From NCBI RefSeq assembly GCF_024362785.1, contig NZ_CP093301.1, positions 4,712,001 to 4,776,000 on the forward strand: DNA of 64,000 nucleotides, in the 5' to 3' direction. The notes under the pieces were generated by a model that made no database searches, was not told the DNA's origin, and worked only from the letters and a program-made list of their open reading frames with translations. Positions 6,640-59,701 of this stretch are shown in pieces. The DNA is from Evansella sp. LMS18 (GTDB lineage: Bacteria > Bacillota > Bacilli > Bacillales > Salisediminibacteriaceae). A program made the translations under genes and the position numbers. Numbering within the stretch: position 1 is the first letter of the stretch; every line of letters starts with the position of its first letter.

Positions 6640-7812
6640 TTAGGCTATCCCCGCAGTTCCTGCGGTTAATCGTAAGGCTTCTTTACGAAGGTTTATGCTT
6701 GCGTTAATATCTCTTTGGTGATGCGTGTGGCACACAGGGCAATCCCATTCACGCATCGCAAGATTTTTAACGTCTTTATGCTTGTGGCCGCACGTAAAAC
6801 ACAGTTGACTGCTGGCAAAGTTTTTGGCTGCCGTAACGACTTGTTTGCCGTACCAGCCAGCCTTGTACTCCAGCATGGTTCCAAATTGTGACCAGGACAC
6901 TTCGCTGATGGATTTAGCGAGTTTGTGATTTTTTAACATGTTTTTCACAGACAAATCTTCCATTCCGATAATATCGTGGTTTTTGACTATTTCGGTGGAG
7001 ATTTTATCTAACATGTCTTTTCTCGCATTTGCTATTTTCTCGTGAATGCGGGCAACTTTCCTTTTTTGTTTATTCCAGTTGGAAGAACCCATTTGCCGTC
7101 TGGACAGAATGCGCTGCGCTTTCGCCAACTTTTCTTCTAATGTACGGAAAAATTTTGGGTTTTTATAGATTGTCCCGTCGGACAGGATAGCGAAATCCTT
7201 CAACCCAACATCGATCCCAATAGACGCCCCTGTCTTTTCAAAGTGTTCCACTTCTGTCTCAGCTAATATGGAAATGTAGTATTTACCGGAAGGGTTTCGT
7301 CTAATGGTAGCGTTTATGATCCTTCCGTCCACCTCACGGCTCTTCGCAAACCGGACAAGCCCAAGCTTTGGCAGTTTTATGTGTTTAGGGAGGATCTGGA
7401 AATTACCATTTACAAATTTCGTGGTGTACGATTGAACAGGATTCTTTTTGGACTTGAAACGTGGTTCGCGATTTTGTTTTTTGTAATACCGGCTGTAGGA
7501 GTCATTGACAATTTCAACGGATTTTTGGAGGGCAATACTATCCACTTCTTTTAAAAAAGGATAGTTCTTCTTCAATTCACGAACAGCTTTTATGGATTTG
7601 TTTTTATTGAAAAACTCACCTTTCCAGTTATTTCGAGGCAGCTGGCCGTTTTGCACCATTTCCTGAACGATATGCCAATAAGCATCTTTTTCCTTTTGTT
7701 TGCCAACAAAATAGTTGTAGACAAAACGTGCGCAGCCAATTGTTTTATTGATAAGTTCAGCCTGTTTTGAATTTGGATATATGCGAAATCTGTAAGCCTT
7801 TTTTACTTGCAT
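6640..7812 (-). CDS. tnpB: TnpB, RNA-guided nuclease of an IS200/IS605-type element
   Basis: 390 residues. The N-terminal OrfB_IS605 region is followed by the split RuvC nuclease with all three acidic residues present: Asp 201 ([10 protein letters not shown]), Glu 285 (GMEDLSVKN) and Asp 368 (HHQRDINAS). A four-Cys zinc ribbon is formed by CFTC (338, 341) and CPVC (358, 361). It therefore looks catalytically intact. The protein ends [11 protein letters not shown], a common TnpB end. The start ATG follows AGGAGGTGAAAACCA. An extended -10 (TGGTATAAT, complement of 7835-7840) is upstream. TnpB proteins cut DNA using an omega RNA and help keep the element in place. Confidence 0.93.
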
Positions 7813-39697: not shown

Positions 39698-40011
39698 CTT
39701 GCGAAATTGGCATGCCTTGTTGCTGTACCACGCTGACTTGTTGCGAATTCATTGGCCCTTGTTGCGTTTTCGTTTTCTTGTTGCGAAATTGGCATGCCTT
39801 GTTGCGATATCACGCTGCCTTGTTGCGAAATCATTGGCCCTTGTTGCGTTTTCGTTTTCTTGTTGCGAAATTGGTATGCCTTGTTGCGATATCACGCTGC
39901 CTTGTTGCGAAATCATGAACCCTTGTTGCGTTTTCGTTTTCTTGTTGCGAAATTGGCATGCCTTGTTGCGATATCACGCTGCCTTGTTGCGAAATCATGA
40001 ACCCTTGTTGC
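39698..40011. repeat. 82-bp tandem minisatellite (about 3.8 copies)
   Basis: Unit of three 21-bp blocks and one 19-bp block, each starting CTTGTTGCG on the plus strand (CGCAACAAG on the minus). The first unit is the most diverged. 82 is not a multiple of three, so each unit shifts frame; frames here are not coding. It lies between the phosphodiesterase stop and the LLM gene start. Confidence 0.9.
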
Positions 40012-40950: not shown

Positions 40951-40974
40951 CTTCATTTTGTACCATATGAAAAA

Positions 40975-40996
40975 AGAAGCGGCAGAACCGCTTCTT
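40975..40996. terminator. Bidirectional terminator of the copA operon
   Basis: Stem AGAAGCGG/CCGCTTCT, 5-nt loop, with T tracts on both strands (TTTTTA plus strand; CTTTTTTC minus). Located 35 bases after the His-rich peptide stop. Confidence 0.8.
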
Positions 40997-41030
40997 TTTA
41001 GTAATATCTTATTTTTCACAGCCAGCTTAA

Positions 41031-41198
41031 TCAGGAATGATCCTCATCCTCACTGTGTTCAGTCTGCATATCATGATCATCTCCATGATCCATTTCACCG
41101 CTTATAAAGGGATTTTCGCCCGTAATCAGCGTGTAGGAACCAATAACAATGACCAGATACGCAATCGCGGAAAACAGCCATTTTTTCACTTCTGTCAT
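41031..41198 (-). CDS. 55-residue His-rich membrane peptide, coupled to copA
   Basis: Starts MTEVKKWLFSAIAYLVIVIG, one membrane helix (about 7-24), then an acidic His-rich tail (MDHGDDHDMQTEHSEDEDHS, four His plus two Met) that could bind copper. AGGAGG lies inside the end of copA, and the ATG starts 2 bases after the copA stop codon, which indicates translational coupling. Too short for routine ORF calls. A terminator follows. I infer a copper-related role from context only. Confidence 0.7.
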   Translation of the reverse strand: MTEVKKWLFSAIAYLVIVIGSYTLITGENPFISGEMDHGDDHDMQTEHSEDEDHS

Positions 41199-41200
41199 CC

Positions 41201-43627
41201 TTATCCCTCCTGCTTTGCCAGTTTGACTTTTTGAAGCCTGAGAGCATTAAGAACGACCGACACAGAACTAAATGCCATCGCTGCTCCTGCTACCCATGGC
41301 GCAAGAAGTCCAGCTGCAGCGATTGGAATCGCTGACGTATTGTAAAGAAACGCGAAAAATAAATTTTGTTTAATGTTTCGGATGGTTCTCCGGCTCATTT
41401 CTATTGCATCAGCAACACTGTTTAAGTCGCCTCGCATCAGTGTAATATCCGCCGCTTCAATCGCCACATCTGTTCCTGTCCCGATTGCCATACCAATATC
41501 AGCCACTGCCAGCGCCGGAGCGTCATTAATGCCGTCCCCAACCATAGCCACTTTTTTCCCTTGTTTCTGAAGTTTGACTATCTCTTCACTCTTCTGTTCA
41601 GGGAGAACTTCCGCTATTACTTTATCTACACCAACCTGGGCAGCTATCGCTTCTGCGGTTCTCTTGTTATCCCCGGTAAGCATAATAACTTCAAGCCCCA
41701 GATCGTGCATCCGCTGAATCGCTGTTTTGGACGTTTCTTTGACGGTGTCGGCTACAGCCACTACTCCCGCAAAAATTCCATCTACCGCGATGAGCATAGC
41801 AGTCTTGCCTTCCCTTTCAAGTCTCTCCATCTCTGTCTCCGCATCGGATACGGAAACCGAATGTTGGTTCATTAGCTTTCGAGTTCCTGCAAGTACTTTT
41901 TTGCCATTAACAACAGCTTTGATACCGTGCCCGGGTATAGCTTCAAACTCAGCAGATTCGAAAAGCTCTACTCCCTGATTTTTAACACCATTTACAATTG
42001 CCTGCGCCAGAGGATGTTCTGAGTTTTTCTCTGCGCTTCCCGCGAACATAAGCAGATCTTCTTTCTGGAAGCCTTCTGCCGGAATGACATCTGTAAGTTC
42101 AGGTTCACCTTTTGTTACTGTTCCTGTTTTATCAAGTACTACAGTTTGAATTCCCTGTGTGTTTTCAAGATGTTCTCCACCTTTAAACAGTACACCTATC
42201 TCAGCAGACCTCCCGGATCCTGCCATGATGGAAGTTGGTGTTGCCAGGCCAAGAGCACATGGACAAGCAATAACCAGAATGGAGATTACAGGAATAATCG
42301 CTGCTCCGAAATTACCTGGTGCGACAACGAAATACCAGATAAAGAACACAGCGATCGCAATCAGCACAACAACCGGGACAAATATCCCGGACACTTTATC
42401 TGCGAGCCTCTGAATATCTGCTTTTGACCCTTGTGCTTCTTCCACAATTTTAACAATTTGTGAAAGTGCAGTATCTTTCCCTACTTTAGTTGCTTTTATT
42501 TTCAGGACACCGTTTTTATTGATCGTAGCCCCAATCACTTCATCGCCCTCTGCCTTATCAGCCGGGATGCTTTCACCAGTCAGCATGGACTCATCAACTG
42601 CCGAACGGCCTTCAATCACTTCACCATCTACCGGAACTTTTTCCCCAGGCTTCACGATAACTGTATCTCCAGCCAGCACTTCTTCCACCGGGATAACAAG
42701 CTCCTCGCCGTTTCGTATAATGTTCGCGGTTTTCGCCTGGAGTCCGAGCAGCTTTTGGATAGCCTGGCTTGTTCTGCTTTTTGCGCGGACTTCGAATAGT
42801 TTACCAAGCACGATTAACGTAATAATTACTGCTGCCGCTTCAAAATACAGGTCCGGCATACCCGTTGCACCAGCATTATACCAGCTCCATCCGAGATAAA
42901 TACTGTAGAAATAAGCCGCACTCGTACCAAGGGCTACCAGCACATCCATATTCGCGCTTTTGTTTTTCAATGCTTTATAGGCTCCCACATAAAACTGGGC
43001 ACCAACGATGAACTGGACAGGCGTTGCCAGTGCGAGCTGTAACCACGGATTCATGAACATATCAGGCATGTAAATAAACGCCGTGAATTCAAAGTGAGTA
43101 ACCATTGACCATAGAAGGGGCAAAGTGAGGATAGCAGAAAAAATAAATTTCCCTGTCTGCCTTTCAATCTCTTTTTCCTTATGGTCTGTCTTTGCTTCTT
43201 CCTCCTGTTTCGGTATCAGTTTAAATCCCAGCTTTTTAATTGTTTCAACCATATCGTTAGGCGTCACTGAGCTGTCATCGTACTGAACCGACGCTGTTTC
43301 AAGAGCAAAGTTAACATTTGCCGACGCCACTCCATCAATCTTATTAAGCCGTTTTTCAATTCTGTTGGCACATGCCGCACAGGTCATCCCGGAAATGTCA
43401 AATTCCGTTTTTTCATTCATTACTTTAAAGCCTAATTTTTCAATTTTTTGTTCAAAATCCTGTGTATTCGTTTTTTCAGGATCATAAACAACCTTTGAAC
43501 GCTCAAGCGCGAAATTCACATTCGCTTCTTCCACACCTTCGATTCTGGAAAGTCCTTTTTCAATCCTTGTGGCACATGCCGCGCAAGACATGCCGGATAT
43601 TTTTAACGTTGTTTCTTTGTTTGCCAT
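41201..43627 (-). CDS. copA: Copper-exporting P1B-type ATPase
   Basis: 808 residues. Two N-terminal HMA domains with [12 protein letters not shown] and [12 protein letters not shown], then eight membrane helices with the CPC motif ([12 protein letters not shown]), phosphorylation motif [13 protein letters not shown] loop and [10 protein letters not shown] hinge. It exports Cu(I). The ATG of MANKETT follows GGAAGGTGAGAGAA; the longer frame is less likely. A CsoR box covers the region just upstream. No copZ gene adjoins. Confidence 0.97.
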
Positions 43628-43641
43628 TTCTCTCACCTTCC

Positions 43642-43660
43642 TATACACCCTAGGGGTATA
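43642..43660. promoter_or_regulatory. CsoR operator of copA
   Basis: TATACACCCTAGGGGTATA, a near-palindrome with the GC-flanked pattern of CsoR boxes, 14 bases before the copA ATG. A TATAAT-like -10 overlaps its upstream side (GTGTATAATATACC). Confidence 0.8.
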
Positions 43661-43724: not shown

Positions 43725-44066
43725 CTATTTCATCAATTTTGAGACAGTTTTCAAAAATTCATCAACAACTTCCGAATCGTCCTCCTTCAGCCGTTCCAGC
43801 ACACAAGTTTTCATGTGGCTGTCAAGAAGCATCCGGGAAACAGCTTTTAATGCTGACTGAACAGCGGACATCTGATTTAATATATCGTCACAGTATACGT
43901 CCCTGTCGATCATACCTTTTATTCCCCTTACCTGCCCTTCAATTCTGCTCATGCGTTTAAGCAATGCTTCTTTCACTTCAGGGGGCATATTGCCGTGATG
44001 ATCGGCATGCTCACAGCATGTAGTCATTTCCTCTGATTCTTTTACTATTTCATCAAGTTTTTCCAC
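43725..44066 (-). CDS. csoR: Copper-sensing repressor CsoR
   Basis: 113 residues with a GTG start, GGAGG 8 bases upstream. The Cu(I) ligands Cys 59 (DVYCDD), His 84 and Cys 88 (LLDSHMKTC) are intact, and the N-terminus has extra CC-x-H-xx-HH. In this family copper binding releases the repressor from boxes before copZA. Two matching operators flank this locus (43642-43660, 44187-44203), so it controls copA and itself. Confidence 0.94.
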   Translation of the reverse strand: MEKLDEIVKESEEMTTCCEHADHHGNMPPEVKEALLKRMSRIEGQVRGIKGMIDRDVYCDDILNQMSAVQSALKAVSRMLLDSHMKTCVLERLKEDDSEVVDEFLKTVSKLMK

Positions 44067-44186
44067 CTTACATCCCTCCATTGGATGATGATATTGAACC
44101 TGCTGGCGTTAAAAATTAAGACTTGTTTTATATACCTGTTGGTTAAATACGTCCCTATACTATGTTATTACTAACCTCATTATATT

Positions 44187-49751: not shown

Positions 49752-52544
49752 TTAGTTATTGCCTCTTCCATTATTGCCTTGCTGACCTTGATTTGCGTTA
49801 TTCCCTTGCCCTCTTTTCGCTTCGGCTTCAGATGCCGTGGATGCAAAAATCGTGTTTGCAAGCATTCGGTAGCTGTGCTCCGTGTGAGCTCTGAATGCCA
49901 GCGAGTTAGCAAATAAGGTGAAATCTGTATCATTATTTTCATAGGTAAAAGCCATCGTCTGTCCCTGAGCTTCGTTGTGGCCCGGCCACCAGCCAGCAAC
50001 ATAAAAGTCGTCGGTACCGGCGAACTCAGCCAGCACTTCAGCTCCTTCTGGAATCTCGGAAATCCATGCTCCTGTCGTTACATAAAGCAGCTCGTCCGCA
50101 CTGTAACCTGACGTCAGCTGATGCTGAGTCATATCAGCTTTAACGAGTCCTTCATGTCTTCCCCCTGTTCCATCAACCTCAAAGCCTTCCAGTACTCCGC
50201 TCTCCTGAACGGATTCCAGCGCTCCGGCACCCATACCAATGTATGCTTTTCCTTCTGCTGTTTCCGCACTAAAGTTTCCACTATCATCCACTATAATATC
50301 CGCCTCGGCTTCCTCTGTCACATGAAACCCTAATTGATTTAAAGTGAAATACAACTGAGGAGATCCAGCTGCGGCAACCGCCGGCTGAGACAAAATGCTC
50401 GTTTCAAAATTTTGCCCGTTTCCTAACGGCTGTGCTTCGAAGTAATAAATGTCCGTATATTGCTGCAGGTCGCTCGTTTCCACGATAAAATCCCCTTGAG
50501 AAATACGGCCTTTGTCTTCGGCAGCAACTTCCACAGTTTTTCCTTCAGCAAGCAAATCATTTACTAGTTTAATAGCATCGTTCGTATTGTTTTTAACAAT
50601 TTGTTTTGGAGGGTTGCCAGTAACATCCCCTGTTGGCAGTTCAACATTGTCTACTTCAGCAGTGACACCGTCAAACGCTCCCGGCTCCCGAATTTCGTCT
50701 TTATCGAACCCGCGAAGAGCAGGAAAGTTTACGACAATCGGGTCATACATCGCTCCCCAGTCAGAAACATCGTCGCCGCTGTAAAGTACAGCGTTAGCAA
50801 GTCCTCGCTTAGCCTGGTTCATCGGCACTACAAACGTTCCTGCCGGATAAGTTGTCCCGTTAATTTCTGTTTCCTCAGTTGTTGCTTCAACGTTAATCCC
50901 GTTTCTTAAGAGGTACTCGGCCATTTTATAAGCCTCTAACACATTCTTTTGTGAGTCTTCATCTGCCGGGATGACATAGTAATCCGGGAAAAAGCTGTCG
51001 TGCTCCCCTCTTACACGTCCGATAGATTCCCCGTCTGCATTGACGTAATGCTCATCAACTGCCCGGTTATCTTCTCCATTTACACCACGTTCAAAAATCC
51101 GAAGCTGGTTTGCGAATAGTTCGTCTTTGTTTTCAGTTACAAAGTGTGTTGCTCCTAACCCTGTGCCTACCATTGCATACAGGGAATCCTGGCTTAATGT
51201 CGGAACTTCAATTGTATGCCCCAGAGAACCGTGCAGCATAGCGTAAATAGCTGTATACGCCGGTGTCATATCGTCCCAGCCGTCGCCCCAGTCTGTCTTG
51301 GGTATAAAATAAGAATCCAGCTGGGAAACGCCGGTCCCTGCCCTGCCCATCGCATGAGCCTGGCCGAACATACTGTCAATGAGAAGGTCATACTCAAAGT
51401 TAGGGTTATGCGGCGGTGTAGCAGGTTCAATTAAGAAACCATCCACATATCCGTGCATATCAAGGAAAGACAGCGGTGTCCATTCAGAAACCAGCTCATT
51501 CACCTGCTGCGTTTCCACCTGTGTTTGATAAGTATTGTCCCGGTTAAGGTCAAAGCCGTGGGCATTCGTTCTTGTATTGGCTTCTCTTCCATCAGGGTTG
51601 CTTGTAATTAAATACAGGAAAATAGCATCATCAAGAATATCATCCATGTTCAAAGTGGCTTCAAAAGCTTGGTCGTTTTCGTCGGATGTCTCAAAGTTGA
51701 TTTCGTCTTCCAGTGCAAACTTTTTCAGTAGTTCAATCTGGGCGTCCACACCTTCCACTTCATCAGGATGGATATTGTTAAACCAGATAGGAACCTGGTA
51801 ATCTCCCATCGTATCATTTTCCAGATTTTCTAATAAGGAAGCAGGGTCTTCCAGTGCAGCAGGAAGTGTTTCTTCAAGATAAGTATCCACTGCCGCCTCA
51901 TCTCTCGCTAAAATAACAAAATGGATATCCCTGCCTTCAGCACTTTCTCCTACTTTCTGATATTCTAGGTATCTGTCATTCTCAGTATCCTCTTCCGCTG
52001 CTGCAAAAATCTCATCAATGGCAGGCTTTAGTTCATCATTGAAGAGAAACTCATCATAAACGTTCAGCCTGACTTCAGCAGCAGCTTTTTCTCCAGTCTC
52101 CGAATCTATCAAAGCTAGTTCATAGTCTCCGATAAGCTCCTGGTATTCTGTTCTTATCGTTCTGTTTGATAAATCGTCTGTGCCATACGGGAGGCCAAAC
52201 TCCAGTTCAGCAGTTATGACAGAAGAATCTTCTGCCAGCTCAGGACCCTCTGTAACGGTTATAAACGGCTCCCCTTCATATTGGCCGTCTCCACTCCAGG
52301 AACCCCATTCAGAAATATCCTGGCCGCCAAATTCAAAAATGATATTTTCCGGATCAGCCTCTGCGCCTAAATCAGCTTCCAGTTTCACCGTACGTATTTC
52401 CGTCAGTGAAAAAAGCGATCTGCTGAGTTCCAGCCCGGACGCAGAGGTTTCCTCCGCAGAATCATCAGCTGTGACACTCATTACGGGAATTGCTGCAGAC
52501 AAAAGCATAAAGGCTGCAAGCCCGCCTGCTAATTGTTTCTTCAT
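49752..52544 (-). CDS. Secreted M14 zinc carboxypeptidase (short form)
   Basis: 930 residues with a type I signal peptide (MKKQLAGGLAAFMLLSAAIPVMS). Catalytic features of the M14 family: zinc ligands His 259 and Glu 262 in NNIHPDEVEG and His 364 in FLDMHGYVDGF, substrate Arg in FDLNRDN, and catalytic Glu 446 in GHTIEVP. An N-terminal acidic domain of about 170 residues precedes it and a large C-terminal part (about 600-930) of unknown fold follows, ending in a Gly/Asn/Gln tail. Very acidic, as in halo-alkaliphile exoenzymes. It follows an S8 protease gene and is a paralogue of 54893-58006. Confidence 0.9.
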   Translation of the reverse strand: MKKQLAGGLAAFMLLSAAIPVMSVTADDSAEETSASGLELSRSLFSLTEIRTVKLEADLGAEADPENIIFEFGGQDISEWGSWSGDGQYEGEPFITVTEGPELAEDSSVITAELEFGLPYGTDDLSNRTIRTEYQELIGDYELALIDSETGEKAAAEVRLNVYDEFLFNDELKPAIDEIFAAAEEDTENDRYLEYQKVGESAEGRDIHFVILARDEAAVDTYLEETLPAALEDPASLLENLENDTMGDYQVPIWFNNIHPDEVEGVDAQIELLKKFALEDEINFETSDENDQAFEATLNMDDILDDAIFLYLITSNPDGREANTRTNAHGFDLNRDNTYQTQVETQQVNELVSEWTPLSFLDMHGYVDGFLIEPATPPHNPNFEYDLLIDSMFGQAHAMGRAGTGVSQLDSYFIPKTDWGDGWDDMTPAYTAIYAMLHGSLGHTIEVPTLSQDSLYAMVGTGLGATHFVTENKDELFANQLRIFERGVNGEDNRAVDEHYVNADGESIGRVRGEHDSFFPDYYVIPADEDSQKNVLEAYKMAEYLLRNGINVEATTEETEINGTTYPAGTFVVPMNQAKRGLANAVLYSGDDVSDWGAMYDPIVVNFPALRGFDKDEIREPGAFDGVTAEVDNVELPTGDVTGNPPKQIVKNNTNDAIKLVNDLLAEGKTVEVAAEDKGRISQGDFIVETSDLQQYTDIYYFEAQPLGNGQNFETSILSQPAVAAAGSPQLYFTLNQLGFHVTEEAEADIIVDDSGNFSAETAEGKAYIGMGAGALESVQESGVLEGFEVDGTGGRHEGLVKADMTQHQLTSGYSADELLYVTTGAWISEIPEGAEVLAEFAGTDDFYVAGWWPGHNEAQGQTMAFTYENNDTDFTLFANSLAFRAHTEHSYRMLANTIFASTASEAEAKRGQGNNANQGQQGNNGRGNN

Positions 52545-52807
52545 TTAAATACCCCTTTCTAATATTGCTTGTCCGTTTTTTAATCGAGTTCTCCTGGCAG
52601 TGTATGACGCCAAAATTATTCACTCCCCGGAAAAAAAAAACGACTTAACTATACTAATATACTTTCTTGCTTGTGTGAATAAAAATACATTATTTTAGTT
52701 AAATATTCACAGAAGTCCTACAGCTAATCTGGTAGTTTTGGCTTAGTTATACATTCTGTATTAAATACGAGACCCCCATATTTGCACATGGGGGTCTAAA
52801 TGAAGTT
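52545..52807. other. 263-bp spacer between S8 protease and M14 gene
   Basis: Contains the terminator at 52770-52797 and leader of the M14 gene with AAAGGGG before its ATG. Nothing else seen. Confidence 0.5.
52770..52797 (-). terminator. Terminator between S8 and M14 genes
   Basis: 12-bp stem AGACCCCCATNT/ANATGGGGGTCT, 4-6 nt loop; the tract on the minus strand is only weakly T-rich. Confidence 0.6.
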
Positions 52808-54136
52808 TTATCGATACAGGGCATTATAAACATTTACTATCCCATGACCGAAGTACTGACGGTCTTCCCCGCTGTTACCTGGCTGATCAGCCGTCTGCTG
52901 AAGCAATGTCCTGATTTGAGCCGGATTCATGTGCGGGTATTCAGCTTTAACAACACCAATAGCTGCAGCTACCTTAGGGGCAGCCATGCTTGTACCCATC
53001 GCCCAGCCGTATCCTCCCTCTTCCAGAGGAATAGTTGAATAAATTCGGTCCCCTTCAACCATCAGGCTTTCATCTTCCGCATCGTTAGGCCAGTCTGGAC
53101 CGTAATCTCCGCCTGGGGCAGCAAGTGTTACATTCCCGTAATTGGAAAAGTAAGAAAGAGTGTCTCTGGAAGTTGTGGAGGAAACACTGATCACCCACGG
53201 GATATCAGTAAACGTATCAAACAACGGTCCGGACCATTGCGCCCCTTCTCCTGGTACCGTGTGCATTTTTTTACCTAAATCAATTCCGTTGTTTCCATTT
53301 GCACCTACAATCATCATTCCCTGGCTTTGCGCATATCTCACTGCTCGTGAAGAAGAGATATGTAGAGCTCTTTGCTGGTCGTCATTCATGGTGCTGTATG
53401 TCCCTAAGCTAAGGTTGGCCACATCGGCCCCATCGTCAGCGGCTGTTGTAATCGCATCAAGAATTCCGCCCCAGTCCATTCGGCCGTCATGCCCTGATAC
53501 TCTGTAAGAAGCAATGGCAAGTTCAGGCCCAACACCAAGCACCCTGCCATTTGCTGCGATTGTACCAGCTACATGTGTCCCGTGAGTTCCTGCGTCTTCA
53601 AAGCCGTCTTCTTCCGTTGCACCTGGGAAGAATGCTTTCCCGAACAGCAGGTTGTCCTGTAAATCAGGGTGGGAAAAGTCTACCCCTGTATCAATAACAG
53701 CAACGAGTACATCATGGCTTCCTGCATTTATATTCCAGGACTTTCCATCATTTGTAACCCGTTTAATATCCCATTGGTACTCTTCATATAAATCAGCTTC
53801 AGAGTCATTTGCTTCCGTTTCTTCTGCACGGGGATCTGCTTCAATCTGAACTTCCGGTGCCCGGATAAGGATATCCTCTGCAACAGCAGTAACAGGAGAA
53901 TGGTTTTCTGCCCATTCAATAAAATCCGGATCGGAAGAACGGACAGTTACAACGCCAATTTGCGATGCTTCCTGAACCACTTCTCCTCCTCTGCTCTCAA
54001 TCTCAGCAATCGTTTCCTGGTCCACTGATTCCTCTGAGAAAACCACCAGGTACTCTTTTGTTACTTCAGCCGTTACTCCATTTGCTGCAAAAGCAAATAA
54101 AGCGAATACTAAAAATGAAAATAACAGCTTCTTCAT
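52808..54136 (-). CDS. Secreted subtilisin-like serine protease (copy 2)
   Basis: 442 residues. Signal peptide (about 1-24), inhibitor-I9-like propeptide (about 27-95, KEYLVVFSEESVDQ...), then the S8 domain: Asp 149 (VAVIDTGVDFSHPD), His 185 (GTHGTHVAGT), oxyanion Asn in VGANGNNG, Ser in GTSMAAPKVAAAIG. Linker rich in Glu/Asp. GGAGG is 6 bases before the ATG. It is upstream of the short-form M14 gene and is a close paralogue of 58347-59672. Confidence 0.94.
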   Translation of the reverse strand: MKKLLFSFLVFALFAFAANGVTAEVTKEYLVVFSEESVDQETIAEIESRGGEVVQEASQIGVVTVRSSDPDFIEWAENHSPVTAVAEDILIRAPEVQIEADPRAEETEANDSEADLYEEYQWDIKRVTNDGKSWNINAGSHDVLVAVIDTGVDFSHPDLQDNLLFGKAFFPGATEEDGFEDAGTHGTHVAGTIAANGRVLGVGPELAIASYRVSGHDGRMDWGGILDAITTAADDGADVANLSLGTYSTMNDDQQRALHISSSRAVRYAQSQGMMIVGANGNNGIDLGKKMHTVPGEGAQWSGPLFDTFTDIPWVISVSSTTSRDTLSYFSNYGNVTLAAPGGDYGPDWPNDAEDESLMVEGDRIYSTIPLEEGGYGWAMGTSMAAPKVAAAIGVVKAEYPHMNPAQIRTLLQQTADQPGNSGEDRQYFGHGIVNVYNALYR

Positions 54137-54454
54137 CAAAACCCTCCAATAGATTTTTTCGGTTAGATATTTCGGTAACCGATATATTTATACTATTATA
54201 AATCGTCAGTAATTTTTAAATGATTCGATGCTTAAGTTACAAGTAAAGAATAAAAGTCATGGGTAATAGTTTTACCAGGTAGTACAATTAGCGGTTAATT
54301 TGTAAAATACTTAAAATTTTAAGTTGATTTACTTAGGCGCTCTTGATGCGCGGGGTTAATAAATTTTTATGGATATGGGTGACAGGAGAATTACTCCGGC
54401 TCTCTGGTAGGCTATAATACGCCAGAGTTTAAAGGGTTATAGGAGGCTTATCGG

Positions 54455-54690
54455 TTGAGATTCAGGTCAAGCGACCGAATTAATTGTTAATCGGAAAAAT
54501 TCCGGTTAATCATAAATTATTAGTATAAAACGCTCAAATAGACGGAGAATTTTCACCTATTAACTCGAAAAGGTCTAAAATGGGTGATTTTGTTTTACTT
54601 AACCGGAAAAATTCCCCTTATATCACCCCAAAATGAGCTCCAATCTACATTTAAACGGAAACTCTCCGTTTATTTTCCTTTTGCTGATTA
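54455..54690 (+). repeat. ACGGA/TCCGT composite repeat, copy 4
   Basis: Includes AATCGGAAAAATTCCGGTTA, AATAGACGGAGAATTTTCAC, AACCGGAAAAATTCCCCTTA and TAAACGGAAACTCTCCGTTT. Confidence 0.8.
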
Positions 54691-54820
54691 ATCAATTAAG
54701 GAAAAGACACCTTATTTATCTCATCAGGAAAGAGAACCCTATTCTGATGTTTGACAGTGAACTGTTACACTTGTAAGTGTGATGGGACATAAAATAAAGT
54801 TTTATACTCCTAATAAAGAA

Positions 54821-54843
54821 CCTCGCCAATTTACTTGGCGAGG
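54821..54843 (-). terminator. Terminator of the long-form M14 gene
   Basis: Perfect 8-bp stem CCTCGCCA/TGGCGAGG, 7-nt loop, TTCTTTATT on the minus strand, about 50 bases after the stop. Confidence 0.8.
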
Positions 54844-54892
54844 TTTACTTTATATACTATTTTTCCGGGTGCTTTTATGCGTCGCTCCCCTT

Positions 54893-57800
54893 TTATTCAA
54901 TAACCTGGAAGCTGGTCATTTCTTCTTTTTTATTGCCTGACTTAGCAAAGACTTTTACCGTACTTACTTTTTGCGTTACAGCCTCTTCTTCACGGTCAGT
55001 ATGGAGCTCTTCTGTTTCTGTCGAGATTTCTACAGAAACGCTGAATCCGTTGCCTTTCACTTCTTTCAGGCTGTCAAAATCAAGTTCTGCAAGCGGAATC
55101 AGGTAAGATGCTTCCCCAGCTTTTACTTCAAGCGCTGCAACGTTTTTCTTCGCATCTTTTACTGTTTTAACAGGAATATCAACCTGAACTGTTTTACCTG
55201 CAGCAGCACTATCGGCAGTAACTAACAGGTTATCAGCTTTTGCATTGCCTTTGCCTGGCTTGTTTTGCTGCTTGCGCTTCGCTTCCGGCTCAGATGCTGT
55301 GGAAGCAAAAATGCTGTTGGCAAGGAGACGGTAACTGTGTTCTGTATGGGCACGGAATGCCAGATCGTTAGCAAATAACGTAAATGTTGTGTCGCCTGCA
55401 TCATGAGTGAATGCCATTATTTTACCTTTTGCACCCTGATTTCCAGGCCACCAGCCGGCAAGATAGAAATCATCCGTGTCGGCAAATTCAGCAAGTACAT
55501 CTGCACCTTCAGGGACAGAGTTAATCCAGTTCCCGGTTGTAATATAAAGATTTTCTTCTCCCTGGTAACCTGAAGTCAGGAGATGGTCGTGAACGACTGC
55601 CTTTACTAAACCTTCGTGGTTAGTTCGTGTGTAACCCCAGGTGAAACCTGGAAGAAGTCCACTGTTACGGACTGAATTTAAAGATTGAACACCGATACCA
55701 ATAAAGTCTTTACCTTTCACATTATTACTATTAAAGCTGCTGCTATCGCTTACTATTACATCAGCATCGGCCTGACCTACAAGATTAAAGCCTAACTGGT
55801 TAAGGGAGAACCTCATTTGTGATGAACCAGTCTGGGCTACATCCGGCTGAGACAGAATACTAGTTTTAAAGTTATCACCGTTACCAAGCGGTAATGTTTC
55901 AAAATAATATTTGTCAGTGTATGGGCGAAGGTCGCTTGTCGCTACGATAAAGTCCCCTTTAACAATACGCCCTTTATTTTCCGTTGCCCACTCAACTGTT
56001 TTTCCTTCAGCAAGGAGTTCGTTTACTAGCTTAATTGCATCATTCGTATTGTTTTTTACGATTTGCTTTGGAGTATTTCCGACCACATCACCTGTAGGCA
56101 GTTCCACAGATTCAACTTCGCTTGTCAGTCCTTCAAATACTCCTGACTCGCGCACTTCTTCAATGTCGAAACCACGAAGAGCAGGGAAGTTTACAACGAT
56201 TGGATCGTACATTGCTCCCCAGTCAGATACATCATCGCCAGGGTAGAGCATAGCATTTGCAAGGCCCCGTTTTGCCTGGTTCATCGGAACGATAAATGTT
56301 CCCTTTGGATAAACTGTTCCGTTGTAGTCCAGTTCTTCTGTAGTGCGTTCCACTTTCACACCGTTACGAAGAAGATATTCTGCCATTTTGTATGCTTCAA
56401 GAACGTTTTTCTGTGCGCCTTCTTCTGCTGCTATTACATAGTAGTCAGGGAAGAAGTTTTCATTATCACCGCGGACACGTCCGATGGATTCCCCGGCAGC
56501 ATTTACAAAATACTCGTCAACTGCACGGTTGTCTTCACCGTTTACTCCCCGTTCAAAGATCTCAAGCTGATTTTTGAACAGCTCGTCTTTATTTTCAGTG
56601 ACAAAATATGTTGCTCCATATCCAGTCCCAACCATTGCATGAAGGGAATCCTGGCTTAATTCCGGTACTTCAATCGTATGACCAAGGGCTCCATGCAGCA
56701 TGGCATACATTCCTGTATATGCCGGTGTCATATCGTCCCAGCCGCTGTCCCAGTCAAGTCTTGGGATGAAATATGAATTAAGTTGTGAATTTCCTACGCC
56801 AGCTCTTCCCATCGCATGAGCCTGGTCAAGCATTTCGTTAACAAGAAGGTCGTATTCAAAGTTTGGATTATGCGGTGGTGTAGTCGGCTCAATCAGGAAA
56901 CCGTTAACATAGCCATGCATATCAAGGAAGGACAAAGGTGTCCACTTCGAAATTATTTCGTTTACCTGCTGTGTTTCTACCTGAGTCTGGTTAGCGTTGT
57001 CACGGTTTAAGTCAAAACCGTTCGCATTTCCACGGGTGTTTGCTACTCTTCCGTCAGGGTTGTTTGTAAACATATAAAGGAAGATTACGTCATCTAATAC
57101 TTCATCCATATCCAAAGTTGCCGGGTATTCATTATTGTTTCCATCAGAAGTATTAAAAGTAACCTCATCCTCAAGGGCAAACTTCTTAAGTAATTCTACC
57201 TGAGCATCCACACCTTCTACCTCATCCGGGTGGATGTTGTTGAACCAGATTGGCACCTGATAGTCGCCAATTGTATCATTTTCAAGCTGTTCAATCAGGC
57301 TTGCAGGATCTTCGAGAGCAAGTGGAAGCGTTTCATTTAAGTACTTGTCTACAGCCTCTTCATCCCTTGCAAGAATCACAAAATGGATGTCCCGGCCTTC
57401 AACCGATTCTCCGACTTTCTGGTATTCAAGGTAACGGTCGTTATCTTCATCAGCTGCCGCTGCAGCAATTACTTCATCGATTGCCGGCTTCAATTCATCA
57501 TAGAAAAGAAACTCATCATATACATTCAGTTTTACTTCTGTTGCAGCTTTAGTTCCGCTAGCTGCGTCAACCATTGCAAGTTCATAGTTTCCAATGAACT
57601 GCTGGTACTGAGTTCGGATTGTTCTGTTGGATAGATTAGTTCTGTCATATAAAAGGCCAAATTCGAGAGTGGCAGTGACAACTGTTGAATCATCCACAAA
57701 GGTAGGCCCTTCAATAACATTTATCCAAGAGGCACCATTATAGTTAGATCCCCCACTCCATTTTTTCCACTCAGAAAGCGGCTTTCCACCGAATAAGAAT

Positions 57801-58006
57801 TCAATGCTATCCAGGTCAGCCCCTTCACCCAGATCTGCCGATACTTCCACAGTTCTTACTTCCGTTAAAGAAAATAAATCCCTGCTTACTTCTAGTTCAA
57901 CCACGTCATTAACATGCACTTCTGCTGCGGAAACTGTTAACGAGGCTGGAATGATCATCGAAAACAGCATTAAAACTGCTAACCATCCAGTTAATACTTT
58001 TTTCAT
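54893..58006 (-). CDS. Secreted M14 zinc carboxypeptidase (long form)
   Basis: 1037 residues; signal peptide MKKVLTGWLAVLMLFSMIIPASLTVSA. Same architecture as 49752-52544, with zinc ligands His 259 and Glu 262 at identical positions, Arg in FDLNRDN, and Glu in GHTIEVPELSQD. It has an extra C-terminal domain of about 120 residues after a basic linker (KRKQQNKPGKGN...) that ends FQVIE; this part is beta-rich by pattern and unnamed. The ATG of MKKVLT has GGGAG upstream; the longer frame to 58099 is not supported. It follows the first S8 protease gene. Confidence 0.9.
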   Translation of the reverse strand: MKKVLTGWLAVLMLFSMIIPASLTVSAAEVHVNDVVELEVSRDLFSLTEVRTVEVSADLGEGADLDSIEFLFGGKPLSEWKKWSGGSNYNGASWINVIEGPTFVDDSTVVTATLEFGLLYDRTNLSNRTIRTQYQQFIGNYELAMVDAASGTKAATEVKLNVYDEFLFYDELKPAIDEVIAAAAADEDNDRYLEYQKVGESVEGRDIHFVILARDEEAVDKYLNETLPLALEDPASLIEQLENDTIGDYQVPIWFNNIHPDEVEGVDAQVELLKKFALEDEVTFNTSDGNNNEYPATLDMDEVLDDVIFLYMFTNNPDGRVANTRGNANGFDLNRDNANQTQVETQQVNEIISKWTPLSFLDMHGYVNGFLIEPTTPPHNPNFEYDLLVNEMLDQAHAMGRAGVGNSQLNSYFIPRLDWDSGWDDMTPAYTGMYAMLHGALGHTIEVPELSQDSLHAMVGTGYGATYFVTENKDELFKNQLEIFERGVNGEDNRAVDEYFVNAAGESIGRVRGDNENFFPDYYVIAAEEGAQKNVLEAYKMAEYLLRNGVKVERTTEELDYNGTVYPKGTFIVPMNQAKRGLANAMLYPGDDVSDWGAMYDPIVVNFPALRGFDIEEVRESGVFEGLTSEVESVELPTGDVVGNTPKQIVKNNTNDAIKLVNELLAEGKTVEWATENKGRIVKGDFIVATSDLRPYTDKYYFETLPLGNGDNFKTSILSQPDVAQTGSSQMRFSLNQLGFNLVGQADADVIVSDSSSFNSNNVKGKDFIGIGVQSLNSVRNSGLLPGFTWGYTRTNHEGLVKAVVHDHLLTSGYQGEENLYITTGNWINSVPEGADVLAEFADTDDFYLAGWWPGNQGAKGKIMAFTHDAGDTTFTLFANDLAFRAHTEHSYRLLANSIFASTASEPEAKRKQQNKPGKGNAKADNLLVTADSAAAGKTVQVDIPVKTVKDAKKNVAALEVKAGEASYLIPLAELDFDSLKEVKGNGFSVSVEISTETEELHTDREEEAVTQKVSTVKVFAKSGNKKEEMTSFQVIE

Positions 58007-58346
58007 CCACGTTACTCCCTTCAAATTTTTTTGCCAGCTATTTGTCTGGCATTCTTTAAAACTACTTTTATGTACATGCAGATAAAAATTTAAAGTCATG
58101 AATTATTATTCACACTCAATAACTGCTTTGGTGAGACTCCATCCATAACAATCACTCTCTAAATCTATTTCTGCATATTACATATAATAGTATAAAGTTT
58201 CACGTTAGTGAATATTAATGCATATATTATATTAAATATTCACAGTTTTCCAGACCTCAAGATAGACCAAAAGGCCCATCGGCAGTTTTAATTATAGCCT
58301 GTCCCCTATTCCTCATAAGAGAAAGGGGACAGGCAGTTATTGATTA
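58007..58346. other. 340-bp spacer between cassette-1 S8 and M14 genes
   Basis: Contains the hairpin at 58297-58334 and AT-rich leader of the M14 gene. No gene seen. Confidence 0.5.
58297..58334 (-). terminator. Hairpin after the cassette-1 S8 gene
   Basis: Perfect 10-bp stem GCCTGTCCCC/GGGGACAGGC with an 18-nt loop, just past the stop. T tract poor; may end or process the transcript before the M14 gene. Confidence 0.55.
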
Positions 58347-59672
58347 TTATCTGTTTAGAGCGTTATATACATTGACGATTCCGTGTCCGAAGTACTTACG
58401 GTCGGTGCCACTGCCTGGCAAATCAGCTGTCTGCTGAAGCAGAGTTCTGATTTGAGCCGGCTTCATGTGCGGGTATTCTGATTTCACAACACCGATAGCT
58501 GCAGCTACTTTAGGTGCCGCCATGCTTGTACCCATTGCCCAGCCGTAGCTTCCACGGCTTACAGGGATAGTGGAATAAGCACGAGCTTCCATATCTCTTA
58601 AACTCTGGTCGTTTGCTGCATTCGGCCAGTTAGGCCCGTAGTCCCCGCCTGGAGCAGAAAGATGCACATTCCCATAATTTGAGAAGTAAGAAAGTGTGTC
58701 CCTGTTTGTTGTAGAGGAAACACTGATTACTCCAGGAATATCTGTAAAGGTATCAAATAACGGACCTGCCCACTGAGCACCTTCTCCAGGAACAGTGTGC
58801 ATTTTCTGGCCTAAGTTAATTGCATTGTTACCATTGGCGCCTACAATGATCATTCCTTTGCTTTGTGCATAACGTACTGCACGTGCAGAGGAAAGATGCA
58901 GTGCTCTTTGCTGCTCGTTATTCATCGTGCTGTATGTTCCCAAGCTCAGGTTTGCTGAAACTGCTCCGTCATCAGCAGCTGTTGTAATAGCGTCAAGAAT
59001 GCCGCCCCAGTTCATGCGACCCTGATTATTCGATACACGGTAAGAAGCAATTCCAAGCTCTGGTCCGACCCCTAACACTCGTCCGTTCGCTGCGATCGAA
59101 CCAGCAACATGTGTACCATGTGTCCCAGAATCTCTCAGTTCGTCACCTGGCTGATTATCCGGGTGGAATGCTTTACCGAATAAAAGATTGTCCTGTAAAT
59201 CCGGGTGAGTGAAGTCTACCCCTGTGTCAATGACTGCTACGAAAACATCGTGGCTTCCAGCATTAGTTTCCCAGGCTTTACCGTCATTCGTCACACGCTT
59301 TATATCCCACTGATACTGCTCGTACAAATAAGCTCCTGTTGAATTTGCATCAACTTCAGCGCGTGTATCAGCTTCTACTTCCACTTCCGGTGAACGGATT
59401 TCAAGATCTTCTGTTACGGAAGTAATCGTATCCAAACCGTTTGCCCATTCTGCAAAATCAGGATCGCCTGATCTAACAGTCATAACACCGATTTGAGATA
59501 CTTCCTGGACTACTTCTGCGCCAGCAGCCTCCAGTTGAGCCACAGTTTCCTGATTAACTGACTGTCCTGAAAAAATTACAAGATAGTCTTTCTCCTCGTC
59601 ATTTGCCAGTGCACCAGCACCACCAAAGGCCAGTCCGGAGAATAATACTAAAGATGCCAAAAACTTTTTCAT
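58347..59672 (-). CDS. Secreted subtilisin-like serine protease (copy 1)
   Basis: 441 residues. Signal peptide MKKFLASLVLFSGLAFGGAGALA, I9-like propeptide (YLVIFSGQSVNQETVA...), then Asp 149 (VAVIDTGVDFTHPD), His 185 (GTHGTHVAG), Asn in VGANGNNA, Ser in GTSMAAPKVAAAIG. Near-identical layout to 52808-54136; by eye the mature regions share most residues. GAGGAGG precedes the ATG. A perfect palindrome TTAACACTGTTAA (59702-59714) lies just upstream and could be an operator. Confidence 0.94.
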   Translation of the reverse strand: MKKFLASLVLFSGLAFGGAGALANDEEKDYLVIFSGQSVNQETVAQLEAAGAEVVQEVSQIGVMTVRSGDPDFAEWANGLDTITSVTEDLEIRSPEVEVEADTRAEVDANSTGAYLYEQYQWDIKRVTNDGKAWETNAGSHDVFVAVIDTGVDFTHPDLQDNLLFGKAFHPDNQPGDELRDSGTHGTHVAGSIAANGRVLGVGPELGIASYRVSNNQGRMNWGGILDAITTAADDGAVSANLSLGTYSTMNNEQQRALHLSSARAVRYAQSKGMIIVGANGNNAINLGQKMHTVPGEGAQWAGPLFDTFTDIPGVISVSSTTNRDTLSYFSNYGNVHLSAPGGDYGPNWPNAANDQSLRDMEARAYSTIPVSRGSYGWAMGTSMAAPKVAAAIGVVKSEYPHMKPAQIRTLLQQTADLPGSGTDRKYFGHGIVNVYNALNR

Positions 59673-59701
59673 AGACTTCCTCCTCAATTATTTGTTATCG
59701 A

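What the first reader, a model, noticed from the sequence alone, without database searches (positions are those of the whole stretch)
41031..41198. His-rich membrane peptide coupled to copA
A 55-codon frame begins 2 bases after the copA stop, using an RBS inside copA. It has one membrane helix and a tail with four His and two Met among acids, a metal-binding composition. Together with CsoR boxes this suggests a copper chaperone or CopA partner not listed among standard cop proteins; no copZ is nearby, so it might take over part of copper delivery at the membrane.
Basis: partly seen in the sequence, partly recalled or inferred. Interest (0 to 1): 0.6.

Follow-up and report, generated by a model that had tools for sequence, protein, structure and literature searches.

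The report
Copper pump's tiny membrane partner
Right behind the copper-export pump gene lies a real 55-residue membrane peptide; its relatives behind the same pump in many bacilli range from a bare 23-residue membrane helix to a 300-residue protein with an outer, histidine-rich domain, which suggests an undescribed helper of the pump.

Summary
The 55-codon frame starts 2 nt after copA, with its ribosome site inside copA. Against G003, the closest relative found to carry it, it shows 18 synonymous and 3 amino-acid codon changes (dN 0.039, dS 1.03), while similarity breaks up after the stop: a maintained protein.

It is the short form of an undescribed copA-coupled family. Of 99 profile hits kept (93 from a 397-genome sample of the order, 6 from nearer relatives), 94 follow copA on its strand: 60 long forms (261-307 aa: helix, His-rich linker, two beta-sandwich domains with seven invariant His) and 34 shorter (23-148 aa). 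On the copA tree the two states interchange at least 18 times. Ten are nearly bare helices (27 aa or less); one helix face (W-A/G-Y-V-Y) is conserved in short and long forms.

Best reading: the helix packs against CopA; the outer His tail or domain takes or buffers exported copper. The inferred topology argues against replacing CopZ, and a CopZ-like gene exists elsewhere. CopA contact, copper binding and function are inferred, not shown.

The parts
41031..41198 (-). 55-aa copA-coupled membrane peptide (short form)
   Evidence: dN 0.039, dS 1.03 against G003
41121..41180 (-). membrane helix, about residues 7-26, with the conserved face W7-A11-Y14-V18-Y22
   Evidence: helix 3-27 in the model of a long form
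41034..41120 (-). His/Asp/Glu-rich tail, residues 27-55, inferred extracytoplasmic
   Evidence: composition; codon counts
41206..41211 (-). AGGAGG ribosome-binding site inside the end of copA
   Evidence: printout
41201..43624 (-). copA, copper-exporting P1B ATPase with two N-terminal HMA domains (ATG start; a GTG start at 43648 would run through the CsoR box)
43645..43659 (-). CsoR-like box before copA
43725..44081 (-). csoR-type repressor
   Evidence: PF02583
44187..44203 (.). CsoR-like box before csoR
40970..40999 (-). hairpin with T run, likely terminator 31 nt after the stop
   Evidence: read; fold z -2.17, 7 of 200 shuffles fold as well; the scanner did not list it; same hairpin in G003

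Best explanation
The frame encodes the short form of a copA-dedicated single-helix membrane protein. Shown: it is translated-type sequence under selection, it is coupled to copA in many genera, the helix is the shared part, and the soluble part has been lost or shed repeatedly. Inferred: the helix lies N-in/C-out and packs along one face (W, A/G, Y, V, Y) against CopA's membrane domain, stabilising or tuning the pump as MgtU/MgtS do for MgtB/MgtA; the outer His/acid tail (here) or the two His-rich beta-sandwich domains (long forms) sit at CopA's exit and take up or buffer exported copper, as CusF does for CopA in E. coli.
For: Selection: 18 synonymous against 3 replacement codons, dN/dS about 0.04; over 8 non-overlapping short-form pairs 51.5 synonymous against 35.5 non-synonymous steps, 17.3 against 69.7 expected if neutral (two of the 8 pairs are not significant alone, P 0.4 and 0.12). 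Coupling: 94 of 99 kept hits follow copA on the same strand, 92 of the 94 with a gap of -11 to +67 nt. Helix without cargo: 34 of 34 short forms follow copA; 32 of them leave no trace of the soluble domain at tblastn E 0.01, though a 90-base remnant shows by blastn in one of these, L040. Copa tree: at least 18 changes between long and short, 9 forced by starred branches. Face: conservation repeats at 98-100 degrees in short (1 of 10000 permutations as strong) and long forms (3 of 10000), and with a neutral anchor and the Trp left out (3 of 10000). Two carriers found by position alone keep W-G-Y-V. Outside location: three unlinked domain proteins (L284-L286) have lipoprotein-like N-termini (lipobox recalled). 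Own genome has no copy of the soluble domain beyond the peptide itself.
Against: No binding, expression or copper phenotype was measured. The profile that found most hits favours the residues called conserved, and the anchor rewards them. L164 lacks the last Tyr and L110 the Trp. Staphylococcus plasmids carry the soluble part in csoR-copA-copZ-X order without any membrane helix, so there the domain may work in the cytoplasm and without the helix. Only 86 of 397 genomes of the order had the profile hit, while 390 of 397 had a copA-like match: CopA does not need it in general. Some short forms are plainly recent breaks (L065 with an in-frame stop, L057 cut inside the domain, L040 with a remnant).
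Confidence: 0.5

Rival explanations
1. The helix is only a membrane anchor; the tail or domain does the work as an extracytoplasmic copper buffer or acceptor, and this 55-aa form is a minimal tethered His peptide.
For: Tail of the window peptide is conserved (7 synonymous, 1 non-synonymous step) and has 4 His and 2 Met; the long forms have seven invariant His.
Against: 12 of 34 short forms have no His in the tail, among them the five 24-aa forms of one genus, and the helix face is as well conserved without cargo as with it.
Confidence: 0.27
2. Short forms are dying remnants of the long gene, kept for a time by chance.
For: L065, L057 and L040 look like recent breaks; several changes on the copA tree are near the tips.
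Against: dN/dS about 0.04 for the window pair and the pooled count; five species-level genomes share the 24-aa form 3 nt after copA.
Confidence: 0.12
3. A cytoplasmic or membrane copper chaperone feeding CopA in place of CopZ, along the lines of CupA.
For: Position next to copA and a His/Met tail.
Against: Inferred N-in/C-out topology, no Cys, no HMA or cupredoxin part in the window peptide, a CopZ-like gene elsewhere.
Confidence: 0.06
4. The frame works through its translation (coupling or stalling at the end of copA mRNA), not through its product, as CutF does for CutO.
For: Start 2 nt after copA; CutF is a known nascent-chain copper sensor (abstract start seen).
Against: Selection acts on amino acids along the whole frame, and no gene follows before the hairpin in the window.
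Confidence: 0.05

Closest known systems
MgtU, MgtS, MgtR and KdpF (small membrane partners of P-type ATPases)
   Same: Very short single-helix proteins made with a P-type ATPase; MgtU and MgtS protect MgtB and MgtA from FtsH (passages of PMC10710835); KdpF is co-transcribed with kdpABC (abstract starts).
   Different: Those serve Mg2+ and K+ pumps; here the pump is a copper exporter, the peptide follows the pump gene, and the helix also occurs fused to a His-rich outer domain. No binding shown here.
CcoS and CcoH (FixS, FixH) with the copper ATPase CcoI (FixI)
   Same: Deleting ccoI or ccoS of C. jejuni abolishes cbb3 oxidase activity, partly restored by copper (abstract and passages of PMC8267372). 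The long form is weakly like Pfam FixH: 21 of 52 members at E 0.1 or better, one just over the cut-off (23.1 against 23.0 bits).
   Different: CopA here is coupled to CsoR and not to an oxidase; the short form matches no FixS/CcoS model at E 0.1. One helix serves in both forms, while CcoS and CcoH are separate proteins (recalled).
CusF, periplasmic acceptor of copper from CopA
   Same: An extracytoplasmic copper binder that takes copper from CopA (passages of PMC7558416); proposed role of the long form and the tail.
   Different: CusF is a small soluble beta-barrel of Gram-negative bacteria; here a membrane-tethered double sandwich or a bare tail.
CupA of Streptococcus pneumoniae
   Same: Membrane-anchored, encoded with copA.
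   Different: CupA has a cupredoxin domain with a Cys-bridged copper pair (passages of PMC7558416); the window peptide has neither.

Membership tests
copA-coupled helix family described here | Frame directly behind copA on the same strand | tested here: met
   gap 2 nt
copA-coupled helix family described here | Helix with W-x3-[AG]-x2-Y-x3-V-x3-Y | tested here: met
   W7, A11, Y14, V18, Y22 in the window peptide
CopZ (HMA copper chaperone) | HMA domain with MxCxxC | tested here: not met
   no Pfam family at E 1; no Cys
CupA | Membrane helix plus cupredoxin-like domain with Cys-bridged copper site | tested here: not met
   55 aa, no Cys, nothing after the tail
FixH/CcoH (PF05751), for the long forms | Match to the Pfam model over its cut-off | tested here: inconclusive
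   member L227 23.1 bits against 23.0; member 1 and 39 others scanned one by one below the cut-off or unlisted at E 0.002; 11 of the 52 not scanned one by one, but none has a better E than L227
FixS/CcoS | Match to the family model | tested here: inconclusive
   not among matches at E 0.1 for 22 short forms; profiles are weak on so short proteins
KdpF / MgtS-type regulators | Physical binding to a P-type ATPase | not testable with these tools
   no complex prediction or experiment on hand
Copper-binding protein | Measured copper binding by the tail | not testable with these tools
   composition only

The most novel reading that the evidence does not exclude
Bacillales copper pumps have a dedicated membrane subunit: a single conserved helix, as short as 23 residues, that packs against CopA, and that carries an exit-side copper-handling domain in some lineages and sheds it in others. 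It would be the first such small partner known for a copper P1B exporter and a distant counterpart of the FixH/FixS proteins of the FixI copper pump.
Probability: 0.4. Interest if true: 0.75.

Novelty: new variant of a known kind. Interest (0 to 1): 0.6.

Why it matters
Copper ATPases are usually studied as single polypeptides with a soluble chaperone. A helix kept behind copA in dozens of genera, under selection even when it is all that is left, points to a missing membrane partner, and the repeated natural loss of the outer domain separates helix function from copper-handling function without any mutagenesis.

Tried and rejected
Chance frame: rejected by codon substitution pattern. Pseudogene remnant: rejected for the window lineage; accepted as possible for L065, L057 and L040. 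CopZ replacement: weakened by topology and by the CopZ-like gene; a second small HMA match at G000 C1:2158426-2158566 was fetched (L303) but not looked at. A missing soluble domain encoded elsewhere in the window's genome: not found.

Led nowhere: a first CsoR pattern with fixed spacing gave 0 matches. Solved structures by sequence gave nothing convincing (best E 0.0025 to a designed Ig protein). Foldseek and VIA-align on the long-form model gave ordinary fibronectin/Ig-like sandwiches (best Foldseek E 1.6e-5 at TM 0.23; best Z 9.5 over 86 residues), so a common fold with no clue to function. NCBIfam matches of A3 and A4 were weak and scattered; their cut-offs were not shown for members other than the first. 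Paper searches (all ten allowed) found no description of a small protein behind copA in bacilli; only open-licence papers are held, and one search returned none at all.

Own errors: one of 60 copA stretches (G232) was fetched too short (125 bases), leaving 59 usable.

Full report
What is there. On the minus strand the window holds csoR (43725-44081), copA (41201-43624) and, two bases after the copA stop, a 55-codon ATG frame (41198-41031) with AGGAGG seven bases before it inside copA. CsoR-like boxes stand before both csoR and copA. A hairpin with a T run follows 31 bases after the stop; its folding energy is only moderately unusual (z -2.17, 7 of 200 shuffles), and the scanner did not list it, but G003 keeps it.

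Is it a gene? In G003, of the same genus, the same 55-aa frame follows copA. 21 codons differ, 18 synonymously; dN 0.039, dS 1.03 (copA tail: 0.0076 and 0.247). After the stop, 61 of 104 alignment columns agree and 22 hold gaps. Both helix (11 synonymous, 4 non-synonymous steps) and tail (7 and 1) are constrained. The fourfold higher dS than in the neighbouring copA is unexplained.

Relatives. A profile of the first 58 positions (A1, 12 rows of both lengths) hit 86 of 397 genomes of the order, 39 of 135 genera, at E 0.001, and 2 of 398 genomes of the phylum at E 0.0001, the window's own and G080, both of the order. In the genus, of 9 genomes two carry the short form (G000, G003), two the long form (G004, G008), five no clear member. 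After removing 8 duplicate loci and 8 rows under 18.9 bits (one of them, L128, a copA-linked long form), 99 hits remain: 65 with 200 aa or more, 60 of them behind copA; 34 under 200 aa, all 34 behind copA. Of the five unlinked, L126 is probably not a member (19.0 bits). 33 of the 34 short forms have 78 aa or less and 10 have 27 or less.

Denominator. 390 of 397 genomes have a copA-like match. From that capped list I fetched 60 copA ends without a profile hit, chosen by hand from the top; of 59 usable, three more carriers appeared (L141, 26 aa; L164, 32 aa; L191, 240 aa), and in 56 no such frame with a ribosome-site motif was seen. So the gene is an optional but specific neighbour of copA.

The long form. 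52 long forms from named genomes (of 80 loci kept from 306 confirmed) align with seven invariant His. The AlphaFold2 model has a helix at 3-27, a disordered His-rich linker at 30-54 and two beta-sandwiches at 60-152 and 171-267 (mean pLDDT 88.1). It is weakly like Pfam FixH: 21 of 52 members at E 0.1 or better, one (L227) at 23.1 bits against a cut-off of 23.0. Plasmid records call it a hypothetical protein. On Staphylococcus plasmids the soluble part alone, without helix, follows csoR-copA-copZ (37 percent identity, hhalign probability 100). Three unlinked relatives look like lipoproteins.

Long and short. On a quick tree of 94 copA ends the two states need at least 18 changes, 9 forced by starred branches, against 27.7 to 27.8 in shuffles. 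The label includes L057 and L065, 39 of 91 inner branches are open, and long branches meet, so 18 is a rough figure; parsimony counts give no direction. Direction towards loss is suggested by L065 (in-frame stop before an intact domain), L057 (cut inside the domain), L040 (90-base remnant) and by L106, whose downstream DNA resumes where the long gene of its relative L049 has ended. Domain copies elsewhere were seen in 6 of 35 genomes searched, not in G000 or G003.

The helix. In 26 non-redundant short and 47 long helices, Trp, Ala/Gly, Tyr, Val and Tyr at positions 1, 5, 8, 12 and 16 are the most conserved, with a helical period (1 and 3 of 10000 permutations as strong). That script's anchor rewards these residues; with the first Trp as plain anchor and left out of the count, 3 of 10000 remain. 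A mere anchor would not need a conserved face, so the helix probably meets a partner in the membrane, and CopA is the obvious one. This step is inference.

Mechanism. N-terminal Lys/Arg and acidic tails give N-in/C-out by the positive-inside rule. The tail or domain then faces the side where CopA releases copper, as CusF does in E. coli (PMC7558416 passages). Small helices that stabilise P-type ATPases are known for Mg2+ pumps (PMC10710835 passages). I therefore propose a CopA partner helix with an optional exit-side copper module, at 0.5; that the tail alone matters, 0.27.

Verdict. Observation confirmed; interpretation right in naming a CopA partner, wrong in seeing a CopZ substitute; the family and its modular loss are the real finding.

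Noticed in passing
window 39699-40011: Array of an 82-bp unit, 3.8 copies, 95 percent matches, in the gap before the phosphoesterase-like gene; similar Cys/Leu-rich frames show at the matching place of G003 (L003 minus strand).
   Followed up: partly
window 49752-59687: Two successive pairs of a large peptidase-like frame (930 and 1068 aa) and a subtilase-like frame (443 and 446 aa), which look like a tandem duplication (names by eye).
   Followed up: no
window 6640-7812: 390-aa frame that looks like a TnpB-type protein of an IS200/IS605 element (recalled, not searched).
   Followed up: no
L272 4810-5466 (Staphylococcus haemolyticus plasmid pBNF01A): The soluble double domain without helix or signal follows csoR-copA-copZ; 100 Staphylococcus plasmid records match the query.
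   Followed up: partly
L284, L285, L286: Unlinked relatives of the soluble domain with lipoprotein-like N-termini in genomes that have a short form or cut form behind copA.
   Followed up: partly
G000 C1:5558-5773 (L302 1059-1274): 71-aa CopZ-like protein with MTCNHC, far from the cop operon.
   Followed up: partly
window 41031-41198 against G003: dS in the peptide frame is about four times that of the neighbouring copA tail (1.03 against 0.247); no explanation.
   Followed up: no
window 43624-43659: The mechanical copA frame starts at GTG 43648, which lies inside the CsoR-like box; ATG 43624 is the likelier start.
   Followed up: no
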